From Planctomycetia bacterium (GTDB lineage Bacteria > Planctomycetota > Planctomycetia > Gemmatales > HRBIN36): a stretch of 64,000 bases of DNA. The stretch lies in NCBI GenBank assembly GCA_016795155.1, contig JAEUIE010000057.1, forward strand, positions 1 to 64,000. Reading direction: 5' to 3'. The notes beneath the pieces were generated by a model. That model searched no databases. It saw only the letters and a program-made list of their open reading frames with translations, and was not told the DNA's origin. Made by a program: the position numbers and the translations under genes. Positions 6,584 through 54,302 of the stretch are shown here, in pieces; position 1 is the first letter of the stretch, and each line of letters starts with the position of its first letter.

Positions 6584-6597
6584 TTCAAGGATGTCGT

Positions 6598-8685: not shown

Positions 8686-8692
8686 TTATTCT

Positions 8693-8717
8693 CCCTTCTC
8701 CCCTGGCGGGAGAGGGG
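8693..8717. repeat. REP-like G/C-rich hairpin
   Basis: A ten-pair stem (CCCTTCTCCC with GGGAGAGGGG, one G-T wobble) around a five-base loop, followed by a G-rich tail GGGGGTGAGGGGG. This layout resembles dispersed REP-type intergenic repeats of many bacteria. It lies eight bases after the sugar isomerase stop and may act as an mRNA end. Only one copy is in this window, so the repeat assignment rests on resemblance. Confidence 0.5.
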
Positions 8718-8768
8718 CTGGGGGTGAGGGGGTAGATTGAGTTAGACGTTGCGTAAATTCTTTATGAG

Positions 8769-8797
8769 CCCACATCAATTCCATGAATCGATGTGGG
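8769..8797 (+). terminator. Hairpin, possible terminator
   Basis: An interrupted palindrome: CCCACATC pairs with GATGTGGG, an A-C mismatch follows, then ATTC pairs with GAAT around a CAT loop. TATTTTCATT follows on the plus strand, a weak T-run. It lies between the sugar isomerase and the large secreted protein and could end the upstream transcript. Confidence 0.45.
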
Positions 8798-8885
8798 TAT
8801 TTTCATTCCCGAATGAATTCACCTTGACCAAAAATGACACTTAAGCTGAGATAGGCACGATGGATGGCCTCAAGGAGGAGGTTTC

Positions 8886-11800
8886 ATGCTGCGCAGTGTT
8901 CTCGTCGTTCTGTTGCTGCTCACCCCGATTTTTTTCACCCGGGCCGAGGATGCTCCTGCTACCCCCGATGCTCCGCTGCGTGCAGTCTGCATGGTAAATG
9001 CCAAGGAAGGATGGGCCGCAGGTGATGATGGCCTGATCCTCCATACCCTGGACGGTTGGGAATCGTGGGAAACGCAGCACACCCATGTTCGAGCCTCGCT
9101 TCGAAGCATGTGCTTTGTCGATGCCTTTGTTGGATACGCCGTCGGTACCGAAGTGCTGCCTTATGGCCGAGGCACCGCAGGAGTGATTCTGGGAACCACC
9201 GATGGTGGTGTATCCTGGAAGAAGCTGGTTCACCGCGAAATGCCCGGCCTGTATGCTGTCAAATTCATCAATGCTGACGAAGGATTTGTCTTTGGCGATA
9301 CCAATGGTGGCTACGTTGGCGGCATGTTCCGTACCGAGAACGGTGGTAAATCCTGGAAGTCTTGTGATTCTCTCGAAGTAACTCAGGGCTGGACTGCAGG
9401 CACCGTCGTACACGAAGTTCCCGTAGCAGTGGGGCCTGCCGGCAGCGTTGGCATTTTTGAAAAGAACAATGTTCTGCCCTTACCGGGGATAGCCCCAGGA
9501 ACCAGTTGCCTGACTGCAATCACCGTTAAGGATCATGATACCTGGGTGGTAGGTACTCATGGCACGGTTCTGCTGAGCAGAAAAACCGGCGGCAAGAGTT
9601 TCGAGCCAGTGAAGTTGCCTGTTCCCGAATCGGTAGTCAACTGTCTCGATTTCAACACGGTATGTTGCTTGGGTGATCATATCTGGATTGCGGGCCGCCC
9701 TGGTTCGGTGGTCTTTCATTCATGGGATCAGGGTAAAACCTGGGAAGCCCAGCGAACTGGCCAGCCTATGCTCATACACTCAATGACATTCGTCGATGAA
9801 AAGACCGGTTTTGCCTGCGGTGAATTGGGAACCATGCTGTCCACAGTCGATGGTGGCAAAACATGGAAAGTCATGCGACGCGGTGGACATCGCTGTGCTG
9901 TGCTGTTTGTCACTTCTCAAGCCAAACAGTTGCCTTTGGGTTCCATAGCCCTGGTGGGTGGCGATCAGGGGTATTTAAGTGTTGCCCTGCAGGCCGCCAG
10001 CCAGCCTGGAAACTGGAATCGTGATCGAAATCGACTGGCGTATGCCACTCGGGCTGTAGGTGGTTCAGCCAGTGAAGTGCTGCCCCGCATGATTGTTGCT
10101 GACTTCCAGGAGTTCATGCCTGTAGAACAATTAGTCAAATTGTCAGATCAGCAGAAACTGAAAGAGCAGTTTGTGCTCGCGTTGCGCATGTGGCGGCCTT
10201 CGGTTGTTGTGTGTGATTCACCCGATGCCAGTTCCCCGGCTGGTCCACTCGGCTCAACGGTTGCGCTTGCTCTGCGCGAAGCCTGCGAAATATGCAGCAA
10301 AGCTGATGTGTATCCTGATCACGTAACTAAGCTCGATCTGCAACCCTGGCAGCCCATGCGACTGATGACCCGTCGCGTGCCAGCCAGCACTGCTGACTGT
10401 GTTCTCGATCTGGATTTGCCCAGGCCTGTACTCTTTGCCGCAGCCAACGATTTTGCCAACCTGGGCAGACCAGCTTTGTTGGAGAAATATACGCTTGGCC
10501 CTGCGATGGAAGAGTACACCTTATGGAAGACATGGACCGAGCCTGCCGATCTCAAAGCTGACATGATGGCAGGGCTTTCACTCGGTCATGGCGGACAGGC
10601 TCGACGTGAAAAAGTCGAAACCGATGAAGACCGATATCAACTGCTCTTGAAAGCTACCGAAAAGCAGCGAAACGATGCCAAGCCGTTTCAGGTGAAGATG
10701 TTCGATGCAGGCGAAAAGAAACAGTTCTTTGCCAACTTTGAGCATAGTCTGAAAGGCTTGGCGCCGCTTACCATTGGTGATCGCATCGTCGCCCAGGCTC
10801 AGGAGTTTGCAGATAAAGGCGAGTGGACCATGGCCCGTGAGTGCCATCTGATGCTGCTCGACTTGCTGCCCACGCATCGCCTGGCTCCCGAATCATGCAG
10901 GTTCATTACCACCATGATGGGAAGCAGTGAAATCAAGCGTCGATTCGATATGGGCAAAATGACTCATCGTGCAGATTACGTACTGCGTTCATTAAACAGC
11001 AAGCCTACTGAATCGGAGGAAACCCGCTTTGATCGTGTCATTCAGGGGCAACGCACTGTCCTGCAGCGTCGTCGACTTGAACTTCGTCGATGGTACGGCG
11101 GTGCATTGGCAGCGGGTGAAGTCTACTCCGTTCTGAATCCCCTGGGCTATGGCGACCCTGATCTACAACTCTGTCTCCTGGCGAATCAGCGACTCGATGG
11201 CCGAGGAGAGCAGACCCAACTCTGGCAGACTGCCTTACAATGGAAGCAGCCACAGGGCGTCTGGAATGATGCCGTGACGGCTGAGCAATGGATCTCTCAG
11301 AGAATAGGCAATGCTCCCAAACCCATTGTGCAGGCTAGTCGTGCTGCCTCTATGCCCAAACTTGATGGCAAACTGGATGATGAACTGTGGAAGAAGTCGC
11401 CTGTTCATGCCATGAAGAAAACAAGCGGTGTCAGTGAACAGAATGCATCCTTTCAGATGGCATTCGATGACAACTACCTGTACCTCGCGGTTCAATGCAA
11501 GCGAATGGAAAATATGCCTGTCCTGCAGCCTGTCAAACCCCGCAAGCGTGATGATGATCTGCGAGCGTTCGATCGTGTCAGCCTGATGCTCGATCTGGAT
11601 CGCGATTATGGAAGTTATTTCCATCTGGAGTTTGATGCTCGAGGCTGCGTTGCGGAAGATTGCTGTGGCGACCGCTCCTGGAATCCACAGTGGTTCGTGG
11701 AAGTGAACCCAACTGCGGAAGGCTGGACTGCAGAAGTCGCGATTCCTCTGGTAGAGTTGACAGGCAACACCAAGCTGGAAAATGAAGTCTGGGCCATGAA

Positions 11801-14619: not shown

Positions 14620-14692
14620 GGGCGTTTAACTCAGCGGCTAGAGTGCTATCCTCACACGGTAGAAGTCACTGGTTCGAATCCAGTAACGCCCA
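14620..14692 (+). tRNA. tRNA-Val (anticodon CAC)
   Basis: A complete 73-base cloverleaf. Acceptor GGGCGTT (14620-14626) pairs with AACGCCC (14685-14691), with discriminator A at 14692. The D arm is ACTC/GAGT. The anticodon stem CTATC/GGTAG encloses loop CTCACAC, giving anticodon CAC. The T arm is ACTGG/CCAGT with TTCGAAT. CCA is not encoded. A phage integrase starts 134 bases downstream, so the 3' half is the probable attachment site. Confidence 0.95.
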
Positions 14693-14777
14693 TTGATTGA
14701 TAATGAACGTAACCCTTTGGCTTATTGCAGTTTGCACACTGCTTCACGGATGAAGCATGAGGCCTGAAAGTGCCAGA

Positions 14778-35082: not shown

Positions 35083-35700
35083 TCAAAATCGAAGCAACCA
35101 GACAGCCTTGTGCAGATAGTTCGCCAGCAGCTCTGGCTGGAACAGGCTCCAGGGCTTCATTGCCCCGGAAAGTGCCCGGTAGCCCCCCATTTCGCAATCG
35201 GTGGTCTTTTCGTCCTGGTAGCGGTCCTGGGTGGCAATCATAACGCCCATCTGCTGGCACTGCAGGTACTGGACCAGGTTGATGATGTTGGCCGTGGGCC
35301 AGTGGTGGAAAACGTCTTTGCACAGATACACGTCAGCATCGGGAATCTGGTCGAAATCGTGCAATGTGGTGAGCTGGTTGTGATGCCAGTGATGGTGGGG
35401 TAAGACGTTTCGCAGATGGTTGATCAGGTGGCTGCAGCAATCGAGGCCGTGGAACGTGACACCGGGACAGTCTACCGCCAGGCTGGCCAGGATACGCCCG
35501 TCACCACAGCCGAGATCCACGACAGTCTTGGCCTCGAGAGTTTTAATTAATGCGGGAACCAGGAATCCGTAGGGTGATCCTTCCTTGCTGGGGTCGGAGC
35601 CGGTGCCGCTGTTCCACTTGGTGGTGCTCCATAAGCCGTTCTGGTAAATCTCACTAAAGATGGCTTCGGGATTTCTGGCGGTACTCTTGTGCGTATCCAT
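35083..35700 (-). CDS. SAM-dependent methyltransferase
   Basis: A class I methyltransferase of about 205 residues from ATG 35700, chosen because GAGGATAAGG precedes it; an upstream ATG at 35757 is also in frame. Motif I is AKTVVDLGCGDGRILASLA (about 58-76), motif II follows as VTFHGLDCC, and a DADVYLCKDVFHHWP segment marks motif IV. The substrate is unknown. It overlaps the glycosyltransferase gene by 47 bases, so the two probably modify the same target, such as a virion or cell-surface glycan. Confidence 0.8.
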   Translation of the reverse strand: MDTHKSTARNPEAIFSEIYQNGLWSTTKWNSGTGSDPSKEGSPYGFLVPALIKTLEAKTVVDLGCGDGRILASLAVDCPGVTFHGLDCCSHLINHLRNVLPHHHWHHNQLTTLHDFDQIPDADVYLCKDVFHHWPTANIINLVQYLQCQQMGVMIATQDRYQDEKTTDCEMGGYRALSGAMKPWSLFQPELLANYLHKAVWLLRF

Positions 35701-37072
35701 GCACCTTATCCTCGTCATACCAGCGCACGCGCTTGTGTTGGTCTGGGGAGTATCCAACCTCGTCCCAGAAGTTCCGCTGGAACATCTTATCCGTAATGCG
35801 GTGCTGAATCACAAAACCGCCCTGGTCGTCCCACGCGCGAAGGCAGCCCATGAACGGCTGGGTGAACACTTCCTGGCCACGAAAAGTATAGGCATGGTGC
35901 GGCGTGCTGGTAGCCTGCCAGGCCAGCCGCAAGTTATCCTGGTCACCGTAGCCGTAGCGGTAGGTGTAGTCTGACCAGTCATCGAGCCAACGATAGAGAT
36001 TCAGTGCTTTCCAGCATTTCGATTTATCGATGAGCCACTGGCCACCTTGCCATCCCCGGCCTGAATCGGGGGTGATGCCGTAGACATCCCAGCGCAGGTT
36101 GCTGGCCATGCCGGGCAGGTCATACCATACCAGGGTGCCGGCGCGATTGTCGAAAAGCCTATCGATAGGTGCCACGGGGTAAGCGTCGGCATCGAGGTAG
36201 AGCACTTCACGGAAGGGACTATGCAAAACCGCGTAACTCTTGAGCCCCCAACTGAGCCAGCGGTTGTCGGGATCGCCCCATTTGTCCATACCCCAGCGCC
36301 TGCAGGGGTGACTCTCGCGGAACTGATTGGCGTCTATCAGCTCAGCCCCCAATTGCTCGAAGATACCAGCGGGCAGCGGTTCGCTCACCCCCCGATGCCA
36401 GATTTGTATCCCCTCTTTCCATCCGTGGTGCCGTAGCATTTTTGTTGCTACATAAACCCCCACGCCATAGCGTTCGCCGCCGCCAAGGATGACGACGCCA
36501 CGGCCTTGAAAGTAACCCGGGGATTCGTTGTTTTCGCTGATTTTCTCTTTTAAGACATTACGGAAAGCCTGCTGTGTCTCCGGTTGTGCCCACCAGCTCG
36601 ACGGCCAGCCATCGTCTGGCACCATATTGCGGAAAATCTTCTCCCAGAAGTTGACGGCGGACGGTTTCCACACGCCCCACTTCGGCGGGTTCATGTCGCA
36701 TGATTCGGTTGCACGCCGGAGCTTGTCGCCGATCAGGGTAGGTTTCGTGGGGCAGCCGCATTCGATACATTCATTGTTGACGTTGCTGGGGCACTCTTTG
36801 CAGATAGCCGCTCGCTGGTCGTGGATTTCGTCGGGGACGGTTTTAAAGCCGCTGAGGATGTGGCGGAAGGTGGAGCCGGTGTAGTGGCCGAGTTTCTGCA
36901 GGAAGCTGGGGCGGTCTTTTTCGAGGAGCTGATCCCATAGGTGCCGCATCTGGCGGGAGTTCTCATCGGTGCCCAGTGCCCATTTTTTTTGGTGTCCGGT
37001 GTGGTATCGCTGGTGATGGCTGCACCAGTCTGGCAGTTCTTTATGAGTGGTAAGGGTGCAGGGTTCGCTCAT
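35654..37072 (-). CDS. Glycosyltransferase with N-terminal zinc ribbon
   Basis: A 472-residue protein. Residues about 85-130 hold a Cys cluster (AICKECPSN, then CIECGCPTKP) typical of a zinc ribbon. The C-terminal domain (about 190-440) resembles GT-A glycosyltransferases of the MNN1/alpha-mannosyltransferase type: GRGVVILGGGERYGVG, then FREVLYLDADAYPVAPIDRL, where DAD near 290 is the nucleotide-sugar metal site. It probably transfers a sugar in the cytosol. In a phage it may decorate virion proteins or alter host surface sugars. Confidence 0.78.
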   Translation of the reverse strand: MSEPCTLTTHKELPDWCSHHQRYHTGHQKKWALGTDENSRQMRHLWDQLLEKDRPSFLQKLGHYTGSTFRHILSGFKTVPDEIHDQRAAICKECPSNVNNECIECGCPTKPTLIGDKLRRATESCDMNPPKWGVWKPSAVNFWEKIFRNMVPDDGWPSSWWAQPETQQAFRNVLKEKISENNESPGYFQGRGVVILGGGERYGVGVYVATKMLRHHGWKEGIQIWHRGVSEPLPAGIFEQLGAELIDANQFRESHPCRRWGMDKWGDPDNRWLSWGLKSYAVLHSPFREVLYLDADAYPVAPIDRLFDNRAGTLVWYDLPGMASNLRWDVYGITPDSGRGWQGGQWLIDKSKCWKALNLYRWLDDWSDYTYRYGYGDQDNLRLAWQATSTPHHAYTFRGQEVFTQPFMGCLRAWDDQGGFVIQHRITDKMFQRNFWDEVGYSPDQHKRVRWYDEDKVHGYAQEYRQKSRSHL

Positions 37073-37755: not shown

Positions 37756-38999
37756 CAGGAGAACCTCAGCGGCCTTGATCCCCACGCAGTCAACAGCGTT
37801 TCCTGCACATCGTTACCCACGCACTGAACCTCTGTCACCAGCTCACCCACGCCATGCAGATAGGCGGGCCAGTCAACCGGCGGCAACGGTTCCGCCTCGA
37901 CCACGGTGTGAACACCTTCGCCGATGTCCTGAAAGCTGACCTGGCTGCAGAGTGAGCCTATCCACACGTCCGAAACGGTGCCCACACCGCGATAGTGGCG
38001 ATACAGCCGGGCGTTGAAGTTCTCAACAATGCGGGCGTAATCCTCAGCCCGTTCATCGGCCCGGTTGTCTAGATCGGTGCTATTGGAACCGGTGTGAATG
38101 AGATCGTCCCAGACGATGGCTCTGGTTCCACTTTTGGAATAGCTGTATGGCTCAGGGTTTGGATAGGTGATGTCTTTGGTGTAGTAAGGGTTTCCATCGG
38201 CTTCCGCGAGAAGCCGCCGGAAAATCACCCTTACCTTTTCAGGGATGACTGGCTTGAACGGTTCCCGCCAGTCTTCATCCCACAGAATGTCCGCCACGCG
38301 CATGGACTCTTCGGAGGCGGTGAACGCTGGATCATCTTCGCCCAGGCGGACGATGTCGAATGCCGCCGTGTAGGGGTTCATACGCAAGCTGCAGCCCAGG
38401 CGCCGGGCGACGGCCTGGAATGCGACGATGGCAGGTACTTGCCAGAAGTGCCAGCTTTCCGGGGTGCCATGCGGGGTAAAGGGCCAGCCGGGCCAACTGG
38501 TAAGCCCCATCGACCCCCAGAGTTCCTCGCCGAGTTCATCCCATGTGAAAGCGGTGCCGCCGTTTGTGGTTTCTTCGATGTAGTCCGTGGCTCCGGTGTG
38601 ATCCGGAGCACGTTTGACGTTGTAGCTGGCCGCGTGGTAGCGCTGGTACATGTAATAGCGTTTGTCAACGATTTCGACGGCATAGACGCGGTTGGGGTCG
38701 TTGTGGTGGCCGGGGGTGATGCACCAGCACTTCACGGGGGAGATTTCGCTGCAGGTGATCCTGCGCAACTGGTCGGTGATCACCAGGTCGAAAGATTCGA
38801 TGTCGTCGAACGTCAGCTCGTCAATCTGGGATTTCTTCAGGAGGATAACACCCCGGCCTGGCTCGGCGCCCAGTGGAAAGCTCATGCGATTGGCGTGGCC
38901 GTACCAGTCACGTGCGATCGTGAACGCGGTGTCCTTCCCCAGATAGCGTGCGATGGCTTTGGGGCACTGCACCGGTAAGCCGCCGAAGCTCATTCCCAT
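37755..38999 (-). CDS. Hypothetical late structural protein
   Basis: A 414-residue protein without signal peptide or membrane helix, rich in Trp, Tyr and Asp. No domain is recognised with confidence. It directly follows the Mu F-like gene with a one-base overlap and is likely a virion component such as a minor tail or connector protein. Its size and mixed alpha/beta composition give no stronger clue. Confidence 0.62.
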   Translation of the reverse strand: MGMSFGGLPVQCPKAIARYLGKDTAFTIARDWYGHANRMSFPLGAEPGRGVILLKKSQIDELTFDDIESFDLVITDQLRRITCSEISPVKCWCITPGHHNDPNRVYAVEIVDKRYYMYQRYHAASYNVKRAPDHTGATDYIEETTNGGTAFTWDELGEELWGSMGLTSWPGWPFTPHGTPESWHFWQVPAIVAFQAVARRLGCSLRMNPYTAAFDIVRLGEDDPAFTASEESMRVADILWDEDWREPFKPVIPEKVRVIFRRLLAEADGNPYYTKDITYPNPEPYSYSKSGTRAIVWDDLIHTGSNSTDLDNRADERAEDYARIVENFNARLYRHYRGVGTVSDVWIGSLCSQVSFQDIGEGVHTVVEAEPLPPVDWPAYLHGVGELVTEVQCVGNDVQETLLTAWGSRPLRFS

Positions 39000-40051
39000 T
39001 ACGCGGCCCTCCGGTAGCGTGGGTTCGGCAGGATCAGCTTGCCGTTGTAACTGGGCCAGGGGACGTGCTCAGGGTCGGTAGGTGGCGTGCGGAACTCCAG
39101 CCACTGCTTGGCCTCACTGACACCCTTGTTGGCGGCCTGGCGAACGGTGAGCGGCCCCCATCCGCACCGGCAAGAAAAATCCCAAGGCGGACGAAAGGTC
39201 TGGAACACGGGATCATCAACACGAAAGACATTCGTGCCGTTCAAGCCGCATTTTGCCAGGGCCCGGTGCTCGGCTCTGACACGGTCGTCGCCAATAGGAT
39301 CGATGGTGGCATAGGGGAAGGCATCAGCAACGAATGGTGATTCCACGACGGCCATTTTGCCGTCACTGTAGGCCTGGTGCAGGTTGGTACGGAATACATT
39401 CTCCGCGTGCGCTTCGCTCAGGAAAGAATTCTTCCCGACAGCCACCTTGAATTCATCCAGCGTCCAGCCTTCCTGCAGGGTGTTGTGGATGGCATCGCGG
39501 ACGCGGGCGATAGCTCCCTCAGTCTCCAGGCCGGCGACGGTGAACGCCTGTTTGACTTCCTCGTCTTCCAGTTCGTCCCACTGCTCGCGCGTGACCAGGT
39601 GACGGTCTGCGAGATCCCGCAATGCCCACTCGTAGCTGGGCATGCGAATGTTGAATAGCTCGCCGCCATCATCGCTCAACACCAGGTCACTGGGTGGGAT
39701 TGGTGGTGGTAAGCCAAGCCAGGGCCGCAAGAGCACCTGTTCCTGCGGCTCAAATTCTGCCAGCACCAGTTCTTTGTCTTCGGGTGGTAGATTGATCTGC
39801 TGAACCTGCAGAATCAGCTCTTCCTGTTCCTCGGGTGTCACATCGAACGGTAGTTCATCCCAGGCATCGACCATACCGTCTGCGATGGAGGCCAGGCGGG
39901 TGTAGGCATAGACTTCGGCCCAGGGCTTGGTGTAGGTGCGGATAATCTCATCCGCGGTGCGCTCACTGGGCGACGTGCGGAGCCGCCGGGCGAGATCATC
40001 GAGCATCCGGCGGCTGAGAGTGGTCAATACCTGGGTGGCTTGGTCGAGCAT
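38999..40051 (-). CDS. Mu F-like head morphogenesis protein
   Basis: A 350-residue minor head protein. The C-terminal domain (about 190-325) matches the phage Mu F/SPP1 gp7 family: AENVFRTNLHQAYSDGKMAV, then DDRVRAEHRAL and PPWDFSCRCGWGPLT with the typical Cys pair. Such proteins bind the portal and enter the procapsid, sometimes being ejected with DNA. The N-terminal half is helical and acidic. The portal gene lies just upstream in transcription order, the usual pairing. Confidence 0.87.
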   Translation of the reverse strand: MLDQATQVLTTLSRRMLDDLARRLRTSPSERTADEIIRTYTKPWAEVYAYTRLASIADGMVDAWDELPFDVTPEEQEELILQVQQINLPPEDKELVLAEFEPQEQVLLRPWLGLPPPIPPSDLVLSDDGGELFNIRMPSYEWALRDLADRHLVTREQWDELEDEEVKQAFTVAGLETEGAIARVRDAIHNTLQEGWTLDEFKVAVGKNSFLSEAHAENVFRTNLHQAYSDGKMAVVESPFVADAFPYATIDPIGDDRVRAEHRALAKCGLNGTNVFRVDDPVFQTFRPPWDFSCRCGWGPLTVRQAANKGVSEAKQWLEFRTPPTDPEHVPWPSYNGKLILPNPRYRRAA

Positions 40052-40362: not shown

Positions 40363-41664
40363 TTACTGCAAGAGCGGACTGGTTTTGATTTTACGGTGGC
40401 CGTACTCGGTGCCCATGAGTTTAGGCCGCTGCGGCTGCTGTATCGTGGGCAGGCTGAATCGGCTGGTGGGCTGATTCATGTTGCCAACGGGACGCTGGCC
40501 ACCTTGACCAGGCTGCTGTCCCTGGAGCGGGGTTCCCGGTTGCTCCATGCCGGGTTGCATACGGCTTTCGTTCAGCCCTTTCATCTTCAGGGCAAAGCTG
40601 GCATCGGGGCCGAAATGGAACTTGGCCAATGCCTCCCCGATCTGGGTGTACCAACTGAAGAGAATCTGGCGACCGATGCGCTCCTGGGTGCGCAGAAAGG
40701 TTTCCATGGTGATGTTGCGACCGGCCCAGCCGCCGGTGTCCACTGATTCCATGAGCTCGCGCGGGGTGCCGATGCCGTAACAGATGCGGCTTTCGTAGTG
40801 CTTGATCACAGATAACATACCGTCAGCGTTCAAAGTGGCGGTAGGCCATTTCACCTCCCAGAGTGGATTGCCTTTGTCGTCGCGTTCGCTGGGCATCAGC
40901 ATCGACATGCCAGACAGCCAGTCGTCGACGATTTTGCGGGCGGCGTTGCGGGCGGGTGTGTAGTCCAGTTCGCCATTGGTGCGGCGAATCACGTTGCCAC
41001 TGGTGGGAAATCTCACTTCAGGGCCAGGCACTCCGGTGCGGGTGATGGCAATATCCAGCATTTCTTCGGTGCCGCGCTGTTCAGCTAATCGCTTCCAGTC
41101 CTGATGGGCTGCATGGAACTGGCTCACGCCGTAAAAGCGATCATAGGCAACTTCGTGGCCGTGCCAGAACGCCTTGCCAGGCCAGCGGCCTGCACAGCGG
41201 AGCACCTTGGCTCCTTTTTCCGCCAGGTTGCGAACTCGTATGCCGGCATAGGCCTGTCCTGCCTTCACGGGGCGTGTGTCGGCTGGGTGGAACACTTTCA
41301 ACCCTACCTGGGACAGCATCTCCCCTTCTTCGCGGTAGAGAATTTCGCAGCCCTGCCAGCCGTAACGGTAACTGAGCTGCACCTGGTGCAGGTCGTTTTC
41401 CCAGAAGCGTTCGATGGATTTCAAAGCCCAGTCTCCCACCTGGGAGCTGCTCGCCTTGATAACTTCAAATTCTGCTGACGCCAGGCCGCCTTCAAAGATA
41501 CGCATGGCTTCAGCGCACACGGGGTGCTTCGCCATGCGGTCGATGTCGTTGTACAGGTGAATGTCGAGGGAACCATCGCTGTTGACGTTGGTATTCCGTC
41601 CACGGTAGTCCAGCGTGAGAGCCTCACACAGTTCCTGGCTGATCTGTTCCGGAGACTTATCCAT
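40363..41664 (-). CDS. Portal protein (DUF935/Mu gp29-like)
   Basis: A 433-residue portal-like protein, expected as the dodecameric ring through which DNA enters the head. Signs are DIDRMAKHPVCAEAMRIFEG near the start, QVQLSYRYGWQGCEILYREE, AYDRFYGVSQFHAAHQDWKR, and a central GPEVRFPTSGNV, followed by a long helical stem (about 240-350) and a Gln/Gly/Pro-rich tail. It is paired with a Mu F-like gene downstream. Placement after the tail genes, far from terminase and capsid, is unusual. ATG 41664 lies one base after the frameshifted upstream stop. Confidence 0.8.
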   Translation of the reverse strand: MDKSPEQISQELCEALTLDYRGRNTNVNSDGSLDIHLYNDIDRMAKHPVCAEAMRIFEGGLASAEFEVIKASSSQVGDWALKSIERFWENDLHQVQLSYRYGWQGCEILYREEGEMLSQVGLKVFHPADTRPVKAGQAYAGIRVRNLAEKGAKVLRCAGRWPGKAFWHGHEVAYDRFYGVSQFHAAHQDWKRLAEQRGTEEMLDIAITRTGVPGPEVRFPTSGNVIRRTNGELDYTPARNAARKIVDDWLSGMSMLMPSERDDKGNPLWEVKWPTATLNADGMLSVIKHYESRICYGIGTPRELMESVDTGGWAGRNITMETFLRTQERIGRQILFSWYTQIGEALAKFHFGPDASFALKMKGLNESRMQPGMEQPGTPLQGQQPGQGGQRPVGNMNQPTSRFSLPTIQQPQRPKLMGTEYGHRKIKTSPLLQ

Positions 41665-41665
41665 G

Positions 41666-42180
41666 TCATTCCGCCTTGAGTCCTGCCCGCATGCGGGCGT
41701 CCATCAGTTGCACCATCCGATCTTCTGCCAGCTCCTCATCTCCGGTGGCCAGGATGGTGAGCCGCCGTAACTCTTCCGGACTGGTGATGACTTCCGTGGC
41801 CAGAGTCTTTTCCGCCCTTACCGAGTCAAGATTCAGGAGCAGGGCCGCACGCTGCCAGGGCTTCAGCTCGAAGGGGTTGATTCCTGGGAAGTTGAAGGCA
41901 ATGCGGGCGGCCCACCGAGTTTTTTTCGGATAGCGTCCACACGGTCAAAGATGTAGTCCATGACCTTGACCACGACAGCCAGGCTGGGGGGCGTATCCAG
42001 ATGCAGCAGGTCTTTCAGCCAGATTGCTATGGCTAAGTTTGCCTTATTCTGATCGTTGCCCGCTTCCTTGATGATGTCGCAGAGTTTGTTGTTGGCTTCA
42101 AAGGCGTCAAGCCTGACGGTATTCCCTGCCAGGCTGATCTCAAAGAAGCCCGGATCGTCCCCGATCTCCAGCCGTTCCAT
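41666..42180 (-). CDS. Frameshift fusion product (gpGT-like)
   Basis: A -1 slip at A AAA AAA (codons 85-87 of the zero-frame gene) continues into an 84-residue frame that begins TRWAARIAFNFPGINPFELK and ends AGLKAE, giving a 171-residue fusion. The second frame has no ATG, GTG or TTG in its first half, is protein-like throughout, and ends one base before the portal ATG (TGACATG). This is the layout of lambda gpGT-type tail chaperones. Between tape-measure-like and portal genes, a chaperone or head-tail assembly role fits. Confidence 0.78.
41863..42180 (-). CDS. Frameshift gene, zero-frame product (chaperone-like)
   Basis: A 105-residue acidic protein produced when no frameshift occurs. It has a beta-like start (MERLEIGDDPGFFEISLAGN), a helical body and a Pro/Ser/Thr-rich end after a run of seven A at codons 85-87. 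GGAG lies nine bases before ATG 42180. The organisation resembles lambda gpG, the shorter of two tail-assembly chaperones, but sequence similarity is not evident. It starts leftward, divergently from a plus-strand gene at 42361. Confidence 0.75.
   Translation of the reverse strand: MERLEIGDDPGFFEISLAGNTVRLDAFEANNKLCDIIKEAGNDQNKANLAIAIWLKDLLHLDTPPSLAVVVKVMDYIFDRVDAIRKKLGGPPALPSTSQESTPSS
41920..41926 (-). promoter_or_regulatory. -1 ribosomal frameshift slippery site
   Basis: On the minus strand seven A form the heptamer A AAA AAA in zero frame (CGA AAA AAA CTC). Slipping back one base reads ACT CGG TGG next and enters the open -1 frame. A G/C-rich stretch follows that may fold. Confidence 0.8.
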
Positions 42181-42268
42181 AGAGTGTTGCTCCCGTCTTG
42201 GAAGGCTACAGAATAATGGAAAAGGCTGGTTAGTCTGAAAAATGGCCGCTAAACTGGTGCCATCGGGA

Positions 42269-42360: not shown

Positions 42361-42705
42361 ATGGTGCAAGTCTCACTGCCGCTATGGTTCGTTTCAGTTC
42401 ATGATGGTAATAAGAATCCTTTAGATTTGCAGTTGACCAGACAGATTGTCACGCCGACCACACGAGTTGGGCATGGGATTTGTGCTCCCATGTTCTCTTC
42501 CGAGAGGGCTGCAAAGATGTTTGCTGGTAGAATTGGATGCAAACATTATGATCTTGTCGAGGTCAGAACATATGTACATCTACGCCAAGTCGCTTTGGAA
42601 TTTCGGGGAATGGGTGCTACGCGGGTTAGCTTCGATCCCGAAGAACAAGGAGCCGAGAGCACAGACATTGAAGATGTCTTCGATGCCATCGAAGAATGCC
42701 TGTGA
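42361..42705 (+). CDS. Plus-strand hypothetical protein in late region
   Basis: A 114-residue protein on the strand opposite the late operon, starting right after a hairpin that contains its ribosome-binding site. It looks like a compact alpha/beta protein (MVQVSLPLWFVSVHDGNKNP onward) with an acidic C-terminus. No family is recognised. It heads a three-gene plus-strand island (42.36-43.36 kb), a moron-like arrangement that could be expressed in the lysogen. Confidence 0.6.
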   Translation: MVQVSLPLWFVSVHDGNKNPLDLQLTRQIVTPTTRVGHGICAPMFSSERAAKMFAGRIGCKHYDLVEVRTYVHLRQVALEFRGMGATRVSFDPEEQGAESTDIEDVFDAIEECL

Positions 42706-42886
42706 ATCATGCGGGTTGCTACTCACCAAAGGGAAACTATGCAACATCAATGGGAAAGAGGTACTTTGTCTGCCGACTGAACGTGATGAAGGGCATCATA
42801 AGTGGGAGGTGGACTTGCATCGCCTCGAAAATATGCGGCAAGCACATCTTCAAAAAATGCTGGCATCCCAAACCCCCACCCGATAA
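42674..42886 (+). CDS. Small Cys-containing protein (tentative)
   Basis: A possible 70-residue protein from ATG 42674 (alternatively 42683), overlapping the previous gene by 32 bases in another frame. It contains ACESCGLLLTKGKLCNINGK near the start and a charged helical end. The Cys pattern is protein-like, but the ribosome-binding signal is weak, so this is a tentative gene. Confidence 0.42.
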   Translation: MSSMPSKNACESCGLLLTKGKLCNINGKEVLCLPTERDEGHHKWEVDLHRLENMRQAHLQKMLASQTPTR

Positions 42887-42914
42887 CATCGAATTATTCT
42901 GGGGGGTTGAATCC

Positions 42915-43358
42915 ATGATCGAATTTGCGTGCTGGGGTTGCGGGAAGTCCCTGAAGGCCAAGCCGGAGCTGGCGGGAAGGAAGTGTAAATGTTCAAAATG
43001 CAGCCGTGATAACACCATCCCCAAAGCACCAGTGGTTGTTGATTACCAAGAACAGCCACCGCCAGTAGTGAGTCCACCTGTACCTGCCATCATTCAACAG
43101 CCGGAAAGAAAGATTACAGTTCCGCCTATTGGATCAGTCTTTTGCTTCAAATGTGGATCAATTATCTTTCAGGAAGCCGAGATATGCCCCCACTGCGGTG
43201 TTAGGCAACACAACGTCAAAAAGAAGAAGAATCCAAGCGGAATTCTCTTCTTCTTCCTGGTGGTATGCATTCTTGGAATGCTGTTTATTCACACCTTTGG
43301 CTTTGGCATTTTAGCAGCAATAGTCACTGTGTTTATGGTGATCGACATGACCTCTTAA
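42915..43358 (+). CDS. Zinc-ribbon membrane protein
   Basis: A 147-residue protein from ATG 42915 after GGGGGG. The N-terminus has FACWGCGKSLKAKPELAGRK with a second CKCSKC pair (about 4-32), a typical zinc ribbon. A Pro-rich linker follows, then a second ribbon (FCFKCGSII and CPHCGVRQ, about 75-97). One or two C-terminal membrane helices (about 108-145) end the protein. A longer frame upstream to 42696 is not protein-like. The role is unknown; it ends four bases into the convergent minor tail gene. Confidence 0.62.
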   Translation: MIEFACWGCGKSLKAKPELAGRKCKCSKCSRDNTIPKAPVVVDYQEQPPPVVSPPVPAIIQQPERKITVPPIGSVFCFKCGSIIFQEAEICPHCGVRQHNVKKKKNPSGILFFFLVVCILGMLFIHTFGFGILAAIVTVFMVIDMTS

Positions 43359-45091
43359 ACCTGTCCATGCCGTGAAACAGGCGGCCTGATTGGTGCTACT
43401 GGGCGAAGTTCGACGACGTACTTGAAACGCCATTCGGCATAGTAGATAGGCGTTCCCACGCCCAGGTTCGCCATAGTCTTAGTTCGGAAAAAGCAACCAT
43501 CTGCAATTGTTGAGACTTCTTTCACCTGTAACCCGTTCCATGAAACAATCTTGGGGCGGGGAATCGGGAACCAGGCACGCATCGCTTCCCCTGCAATGTA
43601 GATGATCAACGTGGAAGGCGCTCTGTATTGCACCTGATCGGTAAGTTCTGCTGGTTTTTCATCGGGCACATAGCCTTCGGCATAGAGATCGCCGGGTGAT
43701 TGTTCGTAAGGGTTGTAAGGCTCCTCGATCAAACTGCTGGTGACAATAGCGTGGCTGTCTTCGTAAATTTCTATTTCAGGGTTGTAATAAAACCAACTAG
43801 CATCTACGTCAGGCGATGGCTGCAGGTCAGTGATGTCGCCGAGTTCAATTCCGAGATCACCACCAGTAAAGTCTGCATCCTGTTGAGGTGGTGGTACTAA
43901 ACTATTCAAGCATAGATCAACAATTATTTCATTGGCAGGATCAAGTTGAAGGTTTGCCAGGCCGCGTGGTCGCAATACCTCTGGGACGCTGGAAACCCAC
44001 AACTGCCAGGCAGCCGGTCCTTCATAGGGATAGTGCCACAAGCCAGCCTTCAGGAATCCGTCTTTTAGAACTTCTTCAAGGCTGCACACCTGCACATATG
44101 TCACCTCGAAGCCAACAGTGTTCATACCATAGATTTCAGGTTCTGACATGCGCAAGCTAAGAATGAAGCTCTGGCTGTCTTGCTTTGGTTTTTGCTGTTC
44201 AATTACCTCATCAGCACTCCCACCAATAAATGCCAACTTGGCTACTTGCATTCGATGTGCAACAAGCTCGTAGAACGCTGCCCACGCTGCTTCTGGTTTG
44301 TAGCTTGGTGATAAAACGTAGTTTGCCGTGATAGTACCATACCATGAAGCAAAGCCAGATTTTTCCGAGAACAGTTCGTGAGAAGCTGTAGCGGCTGTGC
44401 ACCCGACAGGAAGAGCCCGACTTCCCATCTGCTCATCGACCACTGTAAAGTCGGTGCGTTTTTTGTCAAAGCTGTGGTCGTAATCCCTGGCCAGCCGTTT
44501 AAACATTTCAGGAACGGCGGGGATTACATCATCCAGGAACTGGTCCGAAACAACTATGTCATGGTCATCATAAACCTTGGGGATCGCAATGTGTCCCATG
44601 TAGGTTCGGGATGAGTAGCCATGCTCATTGATGCCGATTCTGAGTTTGTAGTTGAATGTCATCAGTACGCCGTAAATGCTGAACGCCGCACAATTGCTCG
44701 GCACACACACTTCGACGGTCCAGGAGCATTGGGCCGCCCGGTTGCCCCCCAGCGGCTTAAAACTGAAATTAGTGGGGACAGGCCCGCCGTTCACATCGGT
44801 GAAGGTGCCGCCGTCGTTAATGCTCCAATCAGCTCCAAAACCTCTGTTCTGGTACACAAACGGCTGCCCCCGCTGCATAAGCACGGTGCGGATCGAAGCC
44901 ATCGCGGAATCAATGTTGTTGCCGAGGTCAGCTACCACTTTCCATTGCAGTGTGACCCGGTGTCGAACGTAGAGCACTGTGCGGTTAGCTTCATCCATAA
45001 CAGGATCGCACTCAAACCCAGTGGTTTCGACTGATGTTGGGAAAGTGTAGCTCCCGTACTCAGGCGGGTTCGGATCGGTGAGAAATGGCAT
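43355..45091 (-). CDS. Minor tail or structural protein
   Basis: A 578-residue protein, beta-rich with many aromatic residues and no signal peptide. No family is recognised with confidence. It directly follows the tape-measure-like gene (two bases apart), the usual position of distal tail or baseplate-like proteins, and an N-terminal beta domain of about 230 residues would fit that role. The C-terminal part (about 385-480) is acidic and Pro-rich, then returns to a beta domain. Confidence 0.62.
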   Translation of the reverse strand: MPFLTDPNPPEYGSYTFPTSVETTGFECDPVMDEANRTVLYVRHRVTLQWKVVADLGNNIDSAMASIRTVLMQRGQPFVYQNRGFGADWSINDGGTFTDVNGGPVPTNFSFKPLGGNRAAQCSWTVEVCVPSNCAAFSIYGVLMTFNYKLRIGINEHGYSSRTYMGHIAIPKVYDDHDIVVSDQFLDDVIPAVPEMFKRLARDYDHSFDKKRTDFTVVDEQMGSRALPVGCTAATASHELFSEKSGFASWYGTITANYVLSPSYKPEAAWAAFYELVAHRMQVAKLAFIGGSADEVIEQQKPKQDSQSFILSLRMSEPEIYGMNTVGFEVTYVQVCSLEEVLKDGFLKAGLWHYPYEGPAAWQLWVSSVPEVLRPRGLANLQLDPANEIIVDLCLNSLVPPPQQDADFTGGDLGIELGDITDLQPSPDVDASWFYYNPEIEIYEDSHAIVTSSLIEEPYNPYEQSPGDLYAEGYVPDEKPAELTDQVQYRAPSTLIIYIAGEAMRAWFPIPRPKIVSWNGLQVKEVSTIADGCFFRTKTMANLGVGTPIYYAEWRFKYVVELRPVAPIRPPVSRHGQV

Positions 45092-45093
45092 AA

Positions 45094-46473
45094 TTAACCC
45101 CCCGGCATGGCGGCGTTGTCCATGCCGCGAGCTTTTACCATTGGTATCTTCAACTGGCCTTGAGGGTTGGCCTGCCAGTTCACGCGCTGTGCTCGAAATT
45201 CAGGACGTAAAGGGATGTCACCAGCAGCAACACGGCCTGGAGCTTGCTTTCCTGCTGCAGCTTCCAACTGTTTAAATTCATCAACAGCCTTGTCGAACTT
45301 TCCCTTCAGTTCATCAATGGGGTTGCCTGGTAAACGTTTCTCAAGCCAATCAAGCAGTTTTCCTATTGCTAAGTCCACTTTAGACAAAACAAGGCCCATT
45401 TTTTCACTAAAGGTGCCGAACTTCATTTGTTCTCGCTGAACTGATCGCCTTTCTTTTTCTAAAGCAGAACGCTGGGCCCCCTGTTCCTTGGCTAGCTCAA
45501 TCATGAAGCGAATATCTTTTGCATTTTCCTCTGCTTGGGCTTTTGCTAGTGTTCCTGAAAATGGTGTCAGCCGTTGCGTGACAGCGCGAAAATCAGCCGA
45601 ATTTTGTTTGATTGCATTAGCAACCTGCCCGATAGCAGTACCTATTGCGTTCGTGACAGGATGTGCAGACATTGCGTTCTGCGCAAGGCCGACAGCGTTT
45701 CCCCGCATCGCGTTGGATGCCACATTCCCGGCATACTCTATCCCTTGACCTGTTCTTTTCTGTTGCTCCGCCTGTGCCTCCTCCCTCGCCACATCCTCCG
45801 GGCTCACCCCCCGTTTCGTCGCTTCAATCTGCAGCCTGGTCTGTTCCCTGATCCGCTCCATTTCCAAGTATCGTTGTGCCAGTACCACGGGATTTGTATC
45901 GTCGGCTTCGCGCTGCTTTCGGGCTTGTTCCTGGCGTTCTTTCTCGGCTGCAGCTTCCCGTTCACGGCGTTGGCGGAGTTCATCACGGGCTAACCAGTCT
46001 TCATCCCGTTCCTGGCGTTCCTCGTCGCGGAGCCGCTGCATGCGCTGCTTCTCGGCTTCCGCTTCCTGCTCTTTCTGCTGGCGGAGCTGGTCGCGGTAAT
46101 ACCAGTCTTCGTCACGGGCCTGCATCTCCTCAGCCCGGATGCGTTGCCGGTTTCTTTCCTCTTCCTGGCGTTCCTGTTGCTTGCGGATTTGTTCTTTGCG
46201 TGCTTCGTTCTCGGCTTCCCACTTGTCGAGCTTGGCCTGGTGGTCTTCTTCCTCGATCTTGCTGATGCCGACTCCACGCTTGATGGCACGATAGGCCATG
46301 TCGGACATTTCCGCCTGGCGTTCGCGTTCGATGCGTTGCCGGGCAGCGGCGAAAGCGGCGGTGGTTTCATCGACTTCCTGCTGGGAACGTTTGCCACGTG
46401 GCGTAGATTGTCCGCTGCCAGTCTGTTCGTCCTGGCCGTCGAGCACCAGACGGTAGACTAATTCATCAGCCAT
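45094..46473 (-). CDS. Tape-measure-like protein
   Basis: A 459-residue protein. Residues about 40-235 form a very long charged helix rich in Arg, Glu and Gln with repeated segments such as RDEDWYYRDQLRQQKEQEAE and RDEDWLARDELRQRREREAA. The middle (about 245-300) is less charged and partly hydrophobic, and the rest is helical and basic. This composition and the position right after the tail-tube candidate suit a tail tape measure that sets tail length. It is short for that role, suggesting a short tail, so a scaffold-like function is the alternative. Confidence 0.65.
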   Translation of the reverse strand: MADELVYRLVLDGQDEQTGSGQSTPRGKRSQQEVDETTAAFAAARQRIERERQAEMSDMAYRAIKRGVGISKIEEEDHQAKLDKWEAENEARKEQIRKQQERQEEERNRQRIRAEEMQARDEDWYYRDQLRQQKEQEAEAEKQRMQRLRDEERQERDEDWLARDELRQRREREAAAEKERQEQARKQREADDTNPVVLAQRYLEMERIREQTRLQIEATKRGVSPEDVAREEAQAEQQKRTGQGIEYAGNVASNAMRGNAVGLAQNAMSAHPVTNAIGTAIGQVANAIKQNSADFRAVTQRLTPFSGTLAKAQAEENAKDIRFMIELAKEQGAQRSALEKERRSVQREQMKFGTFSEKMGLVLSKVDLAIGKLLDWLEKRLPGNPIDELKGKFDKAVDEFKQLEAAAGKQAPGRVAAGDIPLRPEFRAQRVNWQANPQGQLKIPMVKARGMDNAAMPGG

Positions 46474-46482
46474 GAGATTCCG

Positions 46483-46986
46483 TTAGGCCTGAACGAAGTG
46501 CTTGTACCCTGTGGCGTCGTAAGGTAACAGCACGAACCGGATAGGCACCTTACGGAGCGTAGGCCCGTAGAGGAGCCGGATCGGGTTATTGGGTGCTGGC
46601 AGGGCATAGGTGGCCGTGATCGACGCCGGGGCGGACGCTGCCGTGGTGCCAGCAATCGCGGTAAGCACCAGAGGCTTGGCGTAGCTGTCACCCATCATCA
46701 ACCCGGAAGTCAGAAAGACTCCCCAGGTGCCGTAAGGCCAGGCGGCGCCGATGGAGCCTGCCTTGTATTCCTTGCAGATGAGCTGGGCGAAGGCATCGCT
46801 GCCACGGCTCACGAAATCAATGGTGGCATCACCCCAGCCATCCGTCTGGTTGACGGCTTCCGCCAGGGGGATGAGTTCGACGGATGGATCGCTGGAGCCG
46901 TTGGATTCCAGGTAACCCAAAGCCACGCTGTTAAATGTCACCGAATAGCGCCCAGCTACCAGGGTGAGTCCTTGAGGTTGTGCCAT
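46483..46986 (-). CDS. Tail tube protein candidate
   Basis: A 167-residue, beta-rich protein with the size and composition of major tail tube proteins: LTLVAGRYSVTFNSVALGYL at the start and many small polar residues. No signature was certain. Support comes from context, as it directly precedes the tape-measure-like gene with a nine-base gap. The C-terminal RKVPIRFVLLPYDATGYKHF suits the last strands of a tube fold. Confidence 0.6.
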   Translation of the reverse strand: MAQPQGLTLVAGRYSVTFNSVALGYLESNGSSDPSVELIPLAEAVNQTDGWGDATIDFVSRGSDAFAQLICKEYKAGSIGAAWPYGTWGVFLTSGLMMGDSYAKPLVLTAIAGTTAASAPASITATYALPAPNNPIRLLYGPTLRKVPIRFVLLPYDATGYKHFVQA

Positions 46987-51508: not shown

Positions 51509-51996
51509 TATTCTTCCTCAACCCAGAGTGTTCCGCAGAAGGTTACATCGTCTGCCACTGTCGAAATCAATCGGACTACCAACGCTGCCGCTTGCCGTGC
51601 TGTTGGTGCAAAATCCTTATCTGGATACCAGACTTCAAACGGGCTTTGCCTCAGGTTCCATGCCATTGATTCAATGACAGTTGATGTGGTACTGGACGAT
51701 GATACCGTCGCACCATTTATCTCTGCCGCGAAACCCGCCGCCACATTAACGCCTGCATCAACAGGTACAGGAGTGACTGACGAGCCGTTAGAACTGGTAA
51801 CTGTTGCGGCGTGATGGATAATCTGAACCTCAACCGATTCCTCAGCAGCGTCCCCCACTTCAGAAGTCTGGCCTAGCCGAATGCCCCGAATGCGAACGGG
51901 CTTATCGTCTGCCGGTGTGATTTCCCACAAGTCGGCATTGCCGCCTGCGTTCGTCACGGTTCCCGCCACAAATGGCACAGTGTAAATTCTTCCCAT
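51508..51996 (-). CDS. Conserved phage structural protein
   Basis: A 162-residue beta-rich protein whose start (MGRIYTVPFVAGTVTNAGGN, then ADLWEITPADDKPV) matches a pattern I recall from many phage and prophage structural clusters. It has no signal peptide. Such proteins are virion or fibre components without assigned activity. It overlaps both neighbours by one base, so expression is coupled to the large DUF2341-type fibre protein. Confidence 0.68.
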   Translation of the reverse strand: MGRIYTVPFVAGTVTNAGGNADLWEITPADDKPVRIRGIRLGQTSEVGDAAEESVEVQIIHHAATVTSSNGSSVTPVPVDAGVNVAAGFAAEINGATVSSSSTTSTVIESMAWNLRQSPFEVWYPDKDFAPTARQAAALVVRLISTVADDVTFCGTLWVEEE

Positions 51997-54302
51997 TATC
52001 GAGGTCTCCAGAAATATGTTCGGCGTTGGAATGGTGGAGGAGCCTTGCCAGGCAATTCCTCAGCCCCGTAAGTGATGTAAGTCGCCGGAGCGTTTTGAAT
52101 CGTGTACTCAGTGGTCAACCAGTTAGAGTCACGCCGCAAGGTACAGATGCGAAATTCTTCCAGCCTACCGACGAAATAGTTGGTTCGTTCGGCACCAAAC
52201 GAAAGCGTTGATGTCGCAGCACCTGCGTCAAGACCGGCTGACATGGCGTAGGTAGTGCTTCCAGCCGTGCCATTTTTGAAGCCCGTCAATGCGTTACTGC
52301 CATCAAAACTGAAAGCCCAATAGTTCCAGGTGTTTGTGCTACCTGTGAGGTTGAACGAGCCGCCTATCTGCGTATCAGTCTGACGAACCACGAACCCTTG
52401 AAACGCTGTGCCATTAAATCGCATCAGGTATTTGGCGGTGGTAGTGGTTCCATCCCAATTGCCGCTCATACCGTAGTTGGTAGCCGCAGTCAGCGTTGTA
52501 GGGTAAGCCCAGCATGAAACGGTGATAGCCGAGAAACTGGAGATATTCACACCGCTGGCCATCGTTACCGCAGCCGCACTTGGCACTATAGCTTTGTGAA
52601 TCTTACCATCAATCTGTGATGGATTAAGCGTGCCTACGCTTGGCTCGGTCAGCGTCGGCGTGAAGCTGCCACCAGTACCCGCTACATGGTCAAGTCTCAG
52701 CGAATTGGTTCGCAATGACCGGCCATGAATCACCAGCGTGTAATCAGAGAAACAGTTGACAGCATCTTCACCATCACTCGCTGCGCTGTTCCCGTAGTAC
52801 ATGTATATTTCAGTATCGGTACTGTTGGTAATCGTGGGGACTTTCACCCACGCAACTAGCTTCCCCTGCCCAGGTGTGCTAGGGTATGTTCGCAGGCAGG
52901 TGTTGTAGTCCGTGAAACTGGTGTACGTCCCGCACCACCAAGCTAACTTGTAATCCGTATCGCCGCTACGAACGTATCGAGGTCGAGCGTTGACCACGCC
53001 GGAGGGTGAGCCCGTTGTTATTTCTGTACTGGCAGACCAACTCGCCCCACTGTCAGCAGTCGTATACAGACGAATATCCCAGCCGCCGCTACTGTTCTTG
53101 CGGCTTACCGCACATTCATTAACGTTGGACGGATTGATAGCGATACCACCACTGTATTCAGCTTCTCCGGAGTACAGGTAATGCGGAACTGAAGTTCCAC
53201 CGTCGGCAACGCTAATTGACGTTACTGATTGCCACGAAGAACCATTCCACCGCGATTGCCGATAAGTATGCGTATCTCTCGTCGTGCTAGTCGTGGTATA
53301 GGTCGTAAAGGCTGCAACAGGATAGCCACTGCCATCAATTGCAATGTCGTTACCCCATGCCCTTGTGCTTGAACCATCCCAGACCTGCGTTGCCGCAGAT
53401 GGAGCGAAAGCGGGAGTCAGTGTTGAGCCAGCAGAGTTGTAGTATGTAACTGTGCCGCCAGTGGACGAATGGTAAAAGTGATAAAGGCTATTGGCTACTT
53501 CGTTCGGCTGACCTGTGGAGATTAGAAAGTCAATTCGCGTCGTACCATTCTGAACGGCATGGAAATACGGCCTCTCAGTTGAGTTGTCAACAATCTCAGT
53601 TCGGCTTCCCCATGTAGCCCCATCATCAGTAGATACAAGCCTGAAAAGTGAACGATTCGTGGAGGCATCGCCACTCTTCGCTTCCATGTAGTACAGGTAA
53701 ATCCTGTCGCCATCACCCGACAACTGGAAGATAGCCGGATAATTGTAGCCGGTTGCCCCCGACGCCGCATTGACTCGACTCGCCCATGATGCTGCACTGC
53801 CCGCACTGGACGATGTTCGTGAATAAAGCGTTGTACCGTTGTGCAGACAGTAGCTCACCAACAGTTTGCCGCTGGCCAGAATCTTAATGCACGGCTGGCT
53901 ATGGTCATCACTATTAACAGCGTAATCAATGTAGTAAGGTGTTGCTGTGCCGGTTGCATGGTCGTATTCGACCACCCCTACATCACCAGCCGCATTAACA
54001 AAAGTTGTCCATGTCTTATCGTAAGTGGAACTGTACTCGGCAACATGGCCACCAAACCAAGTCCATATGCCGTTTTCATGTAAATGCGGGTTAAATTCTA
54101 CGCGGTCATAATCTAACTCAGTCGTGCCGTCACTGCTGGTAAATCGCAAGTCTCTGCCATCCCATACCGTCTTATCTCTCAGGCTGGTGTCGCCTGAGAT
54201 AAGAATGGGAATCGGCATGTTGGAATGCGAGCTACCCGTCACCGCTGCGTTATCGAGCGTGATTTTCTTACGATACAGCCAGCTTGAGTTGAACCAACCC
54301 AC
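51996..54302 (-). CDS. DUF2341 / sialidase-like propeller / LamG fibre protein
   Basis: A 768-residue protein. Residues 1-75 begin the DUF2341 domain (WLYRKKITLDNAAV, GRDLRFTSSDGTTELDYDR). Residues about 75-480 are a BNR-type propeller with Asp-box-like LVSTDDGATWGSRT and YTTADSGASWSAST. DUF2341 then seems to resume (LVAWVKVPTITNSTDTEIYM, YYGNSAASDGED). Residues about 575-745 are a LamG/concanavalin-like sandwich. It is probably a glycan-binding tail fibre or receptor-binding protein. Catalytic sialidase residues could not be confirmed. Confidence 0.75.
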   Translation of the reverse strand: MGWFNSSWLYRKKITLDNAAVTGSSHSNMPIPILISGDTSLRDKTVWDGRDLRFTSSDGTTELDYDRVEFNPHLHENGIWTWFGGHVAEYSSTYDKTWTTFVNAAGDVGVVEYDHATGTATPYYIDYAVNSDDHSQPCIKILASGKLLVSYCLHNGTTLYSRTSSSAGSAASWASRVNAASGATGYNYPAIFQLSGDGDRIYLYYMEAKSGDASTNRSLFRLVSTDDGATWGSRTEIVDNSTERPYFHAVQNGTTRIDFLISTGQPNEVANSLYHFYHSSTGGTVTYYNSAGSTLTPAFAPSAATQVWDGSSTRAWGNDIAIDGSGYPVAAFTTYTTTSTTRDTHTYRQSRWNGSSWQSVTSISVADGGTSVPHYLYSGEAEYSGGIAINPSNVNECAVSRKNSSGGWDIRLYTTADSGASWSASTEITTGSPSGVVNARPRYVRSGDTDYKLAWWCGTYTSFTDYNTCLRTYPSTPGQGKLVAWVKVPTITNSTDTEIYMYYGNSAASDGEDAVNCFSDYTLVIHGRSLRTNSLRLDHVAGTGGSFTPTLTEPSVGTLNPSQIDGKIHKAIVPSAAAVTMASGVNISSFSAITVSCWAYPTTLTAATNYGMSGNWDGTTTTAKYLMRFNGTAFQGFVVRQTDTQIGGSFNLTGSTNTWNYWAFSFDGSNALTGFKNGTAGSTTYAMSAGLDAGAATSTLSFGAERTNYFVGRLEEFRICTLRRDSNWLTTEYTIQNAPATYITYGAEELPGKAPPPFQRRTYFWRPR

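What the first reader, a model, noticed from the sequence alone, without database searches (positions are those of the whole stretch)
41666..42180. Programmed -1 frameshift gene immediately before the portal
Seen: seven A at 41926-41920 read as CGA AAA AAA CTC in the zero frame. The zero-frame product stops at 41863 after 105 residues. The -1 frame is open from the slip site for 84 protein-like codons, lacks its own usual start codon in its first half, and stops one base before the portal ATG. Known: lambda G/GT and many tail-assembly chaperones use this layout. Inference: a 171-residue fusion is made at low frequency and acts in tail or head-tail assembly. Its place after the tape-measure-like gene, not before it, is atypical.
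Basis: partly seen in the sequence, partly recalled or inferred. Interest (0 to 1): 0.8.

Follow-up and report, generated by a model that had tools for sequence, protein, structure and literature searches.

The report
Frameshifting tail-assembly chaperone in planctomycete prophage
A virus dormant in a planctomycete genome carries one gene that ribosomes very probably read in two ways to make a short and a long tail-building helper protein, a known phage trick, and two related viruses make the same two proteins from two ordinary genes instead.

Summary
At 42180-41666 (-) a 105-codon frame carries A_AAA_AAA in exact slip phase (CGA AAA AAA CTC). The -1 frame runs 84 codons, has no start codon for 68 codons, and ends one base before the portal ATG. 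The gene lies in an intact 50.5 kb prophage (44-bp att repeat in tRNA-Val).

Homologues in four other planctomycete genomes (five loci, mostly 20-35% identical) keep both frames. Each has an in-phase heptamer at the aligned junction: A_AAA_AAA four times and G_GGA_AAA once, in one of two sister copies in one genome. A sixth locus (T_TTT_TTC) is tentative.

Two further genomes with the same gene order have no slip site. They carry an in-frame N+C protein in the frameshift gene's slot, and a separate N-only gene between tail-tube and tape-measure genes, where lambda G sits. So both products are kept.

Best reading: a G/GT-type tail-assembly chaperone made by programmed -1 frameshifting, from a family absent from Pfam, PHROGs and NCBIfam. 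Frameshifting itself was not measured. The gene class is known. New are the sequence family, the shifting gene position, and the natural exchange of frameshifting for two genes.

The parts
41666..42180 (-). whole frameshift gene: 171-aa fusion (87 zero-frame + 84 -1-frame codons) plus stop
41863..42180 (-). zero-frame ORF, 105 aa: N domain alone (gpG-like product); predicted fold three strands then three helices, mean pLDDT 80.7
41920..41926 (-). slippery heptamer A_AAA_AAA in slip phase (CGA AAA AAA CTC)
41666..41920 (-). -1-frame extension, 84 codons plus TGA; C domain (gpT-like), no start codon for 68 codons
41842..41913 (-). predicted stem (7 G-C pairs GGGCCGC/GCGGCCC, arms 41913-41907 and 41848-41842) starting 6 nt after the heptamer; possible stimulator, weak statistics (z -2.2 for 80 nt, not significant for 50, 70 or 116 nt)
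42190..42194 (-). Shine-Dalgarno GGGAG of the zero-frame start
   Evidence: direct reading
40363..41664 (-). portal protein (Mu-type; PF06074 weak here, above cut-off in homologues)
38999..40051 (-). Mu F-like minor head protein (PF04233)
43355..45091 (-). 578-aa conserved neighbour, probable tail protein of unknown type; synteny anchor
45094..46473 (-). 459-aa probable tape-measure protein (by position; positional counterparts in G694/G857 match PHROG tape-measure families)
46483..46986 (-). 167-aa probable tail-tube protein (by position and conservation; no family match, poor model)
14651..14694 (+). attL: 44-bp perfect repeat of the tRNA-Val 3' half; other copy at contig position 65111-65154, just beyond the window

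Best explanation
[quoted passage not shown] Most ribosomes read the zero frame and make a 105-aa N-domain protein (gpG-like). A minority, with two lysyl-tRNAs on A_AAA_AAA, slip back one base and make a 171-aa N+C fusion (gpGT-like). By analogy with lambda, many copies of the N protein coat the tape-measure protein, and the rare fusion recruits tail-tube subunits through its C domain; neither would stay in the virion. Shown: both frames, the phased slip site, their conservation, absence of an independent start, and homologues in which N-only and N+C proteins come from two separate genes. Inferred: that slipping happens, its frequency, and the binding partners.
For: Slip site and frames. G034: CGA AAA AAA G at the homologous residues, -1 frame 91 codons, C domains related (Smith-Waterman 73 against shuffles 24.7 +- 4.5). 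G083 has two copies: CTA AAA AAA GCC and CTG GGA AAA GCC, so the heptamer type changed but slipperiness was kept; dN/dS of the C region is 0.42 in the -1 frame against 0.83 and 1.52 in the others. G025: found by profile at 1e-11 without using the heptamer, A9 run. G149: A9 run, in the same neighbour-gene-portal order. A slip site in every overlap. Stems start 5-6 nt after the heptamer in the window, G034 and both G083 copies. G694 and G857: same slot, in-frame N+C protein, no slip site, plus an N-only gene between tail-tube and tape-measure genes; window C domain against G857 fused C domain z about 17. Second viral structure hit is annotated tail assembly chaperone, E 0.048. In lambda, gpG and gpGT (30:1) bind the tape measure, T binds the tube subunit, and this frameshift is widely conserved despite low sequence similarity (PMC5009743).
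Against: No frameshift or fusion peptide was measured. The gene lies after the tape measure, not between tube and tape measure. There is no detectable sequence similarity to lambda gpG or HK97 gp13 and no match in Pfam, PHROGs, NCBIfam or PDB. The stimulatory stem in the window is statistically weak, and no good upstream Shine-Dalgarno-like stimulator is present. In G694 and G857 the phages manage without frameshifting. Tube and tape-measure genes of the window are assigned by position and distant homology.
Confidence: 0.84

Rival explanations
1. RNA polymerase slippage on the A run, rather than ribosomal slipping, makes the mixed mRNAs that encode the fusion.
For: Homopolymer runs of 7 to 9 A in the window, G034, G083a, G025 and G149.
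Against: One G083 copy has only GGGAAAAG, and the tentative G058 member has six T, both too short for usual polymerase slippage. All sites are in ribosomal slip phase, which polymerase slippage does not need. Stems begin 5-6 nt downstream in four loci.
Confidence: 0.08
2. The gene is a decayed fused gene: the -1 frame is the remnant of an in-frame N+C protein broken by an indel in the A run (or an assembly error), and no fusion is made.
For: In-frame fused relatives exist in the same slot, and A runs are indel hotspots.
Against: The same broken state, with a phased heptamer and a full-length open second frame, recurs in five other loci with N domains mostly 20-35% identical to the window's. 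The -1 frame evolves under constraint in the G083 pair. No other N-domain gene was found in the window.
Confidence: 0.05
3. Frameshifting is real, but the two proteins serve portal or head-tail joining rather than tube assembly.
For: The gene is next to the portal in the window, G034 and G149, and its fused homologue is next to it in G694 and G857.
Against: In G025 the gene lies between tube and tape measure, in G083 directly before the tape measure; in G694 and G857 the N-only gene lies exactly between tube and tape measure.
Confidence: 0.08
4. The second frame is translated on its own as a separate protein.
For: None in the window.
Against: No ATG, GTG or TTG in the first 68 codons of the -1 frame. 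Relatives show no clear start with a ribosome-binding site near the junction, although some have distant in-frame start codons.
Confidence: 0.02

Closest known systems
Phage lambda G/GT tail-assembly chaperone
   Same: Two overlapping frames, -1 slip near the end of the first frame, a short and an extended product (140- and 144-codon annotated frames in lambda), part of the tail gene run; lambda layout V-G/T-H checked.
   Different: Lies after tape measure and 578-aa neighbour, before the portal; heptamer A_AAA_AAA instead of lambda GGGAAAG (recalled); no detectable sequence similarity.
HK97 gp13/gp14
   Same: Tail-assembly chaperone with annotated -1 frameshift extension.
   Different: No detectable similarity; HK97 gene lies between tail subunit and tape measure.
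Two-gene tail-assembly chaperones of some actinophages (Figueroism, subcluster EA1)
   Same: Chaperones said to be encoded by two separate genes (PMC11659878), resembling the G694/G857 state.
   Different: That paper gives no detail; here the second gene is a complete in-frame N+C protein several kilobases away in the slot used by frameshifting relatives.

Membership tests
G/GT-type tail-assembly chaperone | two overlapping frames joined by a -1 slip at a phased X_XXY_YYZ heptamer | tested here: met
   (sequence only, slipping not measured)
G/GT-type tail-assembly chaperone | frameshift layout conserved in related phages | tested here: met
   window plus five loci in four genomes, one more tentative
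G/GT-type tail-assembly chaperone | usual position between tail-tube and tape-measure genes | tested here: not met
   window gene lies after the tape measure; a usual rather than obligatory feature. Met by N-only homologues in G694/G857; G025 lies there but inverted. So the claim made is 'works like G/GT', not membership of a named sequence family
G/GT-type tail-assembly chaperone | N-only and N+C products both kept | tested here: met
   G694 and G857 encode both as separate genes
lambda gpG / HK97 gp13 sequence families | sequence homology | tested here: not met
   hhalign probability below 1%; no Pfam, PHROG, NCBIfam match
G/GT-type tail-assembly chaperone | fold of a known tail-assembly chaperone | tested here: inconclusive
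   no PDB match; second viral hit annotated tail assembly chaperone at E 0.048
G/GT-type tail-assembly chaperone | binds tape measure and tube protein; absent from virion; low-frequency fusion | not testable with these tools
   needs experiment

The most novel reading that the evidence does not exclude
In this planctomycete prophage lineage programmed frameshifting and gene duplication are interchangeable ways of making the G and GT chaperones. In G694 and G857 a duplicated N gene in the classical place plus an in-frame N+C gene replaced the slip site (or the reverse happened), and the gene has moved and even inverted within the tail module. This separates the need for two products from the need for a ribosome-set ratio.
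Probability: 0.5. Interest if true: 0.62.

Novelty: new variant of a known kind. Interest (0 to 1): 0.5.

Why it matters
It extends the classical lambda-type frameshift to planctomycete prophages, with an unnamed protein family that current libraries miss. It also supplies natural variants that separate two questions usually tied together: whether tail assembly needs both chaperone forms, and whether it needs the ratio that a slipping ribosome fixes. Prophages with the two proteins on two separate genes can be compared directly with frameshifting relatives.

Tried and rejected
IMG/VR scans with portal, neighbour and alignments: no relatives. tblastn in phage records: none. G159 first hit: no homology, dropped. 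G058 (T_TTT_TTC) looks right in layout, but pairwise homology is not significant (C z at most about 2, N z at most about 4), so it is kept as tentative only. Small ORF before the G149 tape measure: not homologous to the N domain, its A run is part of a ribosome-binding site. Tail-tube model failed (pLDDT 30). Rfam: no known frameshift element. Neighbour homologues in G064, G020, G056, G014, G078, G026 and record WGNR01000010.1 showed no frameshift gene within the fetched flanks. Independent initiation and pseudogene readings rejected as above.

Full report
OBSERVATION. The described feature is present exactly as stated. On the - strand the zero frame runs from ATG 42180 to TGA 41865-41863 (105 aa). 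It contains CGA AAA AAA CTC with seven A at 41926-41920, the phase X_XXY_YYZ. The -1 frame is open from 41944, continues 84 codons past the slip and stops at 41668-41666; the portal begins at 41664. The -1 frame contains no ATG, GTG or TTG before 41716, so it cannot be an independently started gene of comparable length. The zero-frame start has a GGGAG Shine-Dalgarno.

SETTING. The window lies in a planctomycete assembly (G000, contig 57; identification from its relatives). A tyrosine integrase (PF00589) sits beside a tRNA-Val. A perfect 44-bp repeat of the tRNA 3' half occurs at 14651-14694 and again at contig position 65111-65154, giving an apparently intact prophage of about 50.5 kb. Terminase, capsid (PF03864) and Mu F-like protein are recognisable. 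The order on the - strand is terminase, capsid, connectors, tail-tube candidate, tape-measure candidate, 578-aa neighbour, frameshift gene, portal, minor head protein. The tube and tape-measure names rest on position and on homologues or positional counterparts: tube against G857, 35% identity, E 3e-19; the G694 and G857 tape measures match PHROG tape-measure families.

RELATIVES THAT FRAMESHIFT. The gene with its layout was found in G034, in two copies in G083, in G025 and in G149. Slip sites: window CGA AAA AAA C, G034 CGA AAA AAA G, G083a CTA AAA AAA G, G083b CTG GGA AAA G, G025 C AAA AAA AAA C, G149 TTA AAA AAA AAT. The distance from slip to zero-frame stop is 7 to 21 codons, and the -1 extension 84 to 91 codons. 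The two G083 copies are nearly identical around the site, but their heptamers differ: A_AAA_AAA against G_GGA_AAA. The encoded residues changed (LKK to LGK) while slipperiness stayed. In the region after the heptamer the pair shows dN/dS 0.42 in the -1 frame against 0.83 and 1.52 in the other two (36 differences, so a modest test). A sixth locus, G058 with T_TTT_TTC, has the layout but no significant pairwise homology and is treated as tentative.

CHANCE. In-phase heptamers of this type occur at 0.0003 to 0.0029 per codon in other ORFs of the same loci. Every one of the seven overlaps contains a slip site at the protein junction (in G149 its A9 run reads as two adjacent heptamers); the per-locus chance is 0.02 to 0.20 and the product 5e-10. 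Two loci were picked partly by the heptamer and two are close relatives. Counting only the four found by homology alone the product is about 2.5e-6.

RELATIVES WITHOUT FRAMESHIFT. G694 and G857, from another planctomycete family, have the same order of neighbour, X, portal. There X is a single-frame protein of 169-170 aa with both domains and no slip site; in G857 the junction reads TTA CAA AAG AAG ACC. Each also has a separate N-only gene between the tail-tube and tape-measure genes. Homology is strong along the chain: window C domain to G857 fused C domain z about 17; G149 -1-frame C domain to G694 fused C domain z about 34; G149 N to both N-only proteins z about 20-23. Thus the -1 frame of the window is homologous to the in-frame C half of a real protein in the same slot. 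The N-only product is separately maintained in the place where lambda keeps gene G (lambda order checked).

OTHER EVIDENCE. The N domain was predicted from its single sequence with mean pLDDT 80.7, three strands followed by three helices. Foldseek gave no PDB match. The top viral match is an uncharacterised phage protein (TM 0.61) and the second is annotated tail assembly chaperone, both E 0.048. Predicted stems start 5-6 nt after the heptamer in the window, G034 and both G083 copies. They are significant in G034 and G083 and weak in the window. Searches with Pfam, PHROGs, NCBIfam, PDB sequences, phage records and IMG/VR found nothing.

MECHANISM. In lambda, gpG and gpGT at about 30:1 bind the tape measure, and the T part binds the tube subunit; this frameshift is widely conserved with little sequence similarity (PMC5009743). 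HK97-like chaperone cassettes gave 6-7% frameshifting in reporters (PMC3711429). The same mechanism is the best reading here. Shown by sequence: two frames, phased site, conservation, the two-gene alternative. Inferred: actual slipping, ratio, partners.

NOVELTY. The mechanism class is old. New are the unnamed family, its variable place (before the portal; directly before the tape measure in G083; inverted between tube and tape measure in G025), and the exchange between one frameshifting gene and two ordinary genes. Chaperones from two separate genes have been mentioned for some actinophages (PMC11659878) without detail; I found no paper describing such an exchange within one family, but most subscription papers, including Xu, Hendrix and Duda 2004, were not readable here.

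Noticed in passing
L095 (G857) 6324-8402 -: Portal protein carries a C-terminal ADP-ribosyltransferase domain (PF03496, E 1.6e-23), so the portal may bring an enzyme into the particle or cell.
   Followed up: no
L035 (G149) 8411-10399 +: Portal protein ends in a large polyvalent protein-associated domain (LPD3, PF18798).
   Followed up: no
L029 (G025) 1545-2182 -: The frameshift gene is inverted relative to the tail genes around it, between tube and tape-measure genes, so it would need its own promoter.
   Followed up: partly
L026 and L028 (G083): Two near-identical copies of a short element with frameshift gene, tape measure and neighbour (terminase-like ORF seen in L028), without recognisable portal or tail-tube homologues; remnant or satellite.
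   Followed up: no
window 42361-43358 +: Two opposite-strand ORFs (one zinc-ribbon-like) sit between the 578-aa neighbour and the frameshift gene; absent in G034, where the two genes abut. Probable inserted cargo.
   Followed up: partly
window 51996-54302 -: 768-aa protein with BNR repeats and DUF2341, perhaps a glycan-binding or sialidase-like tail fibre.
   Followed up: no
window 35083-37072 -: Glycosyltransferase-like protein (PF11051) overlapping a methyltransferase-like ORF in another frame; the junction was not checked for a second frameshift.
   Followed up: no
L034 (G058) 7035-7636 +: Tentative family member with slip site T_TTT_TTC between connector and tail genes; homology not significant pairwise.
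   Followed up: partly
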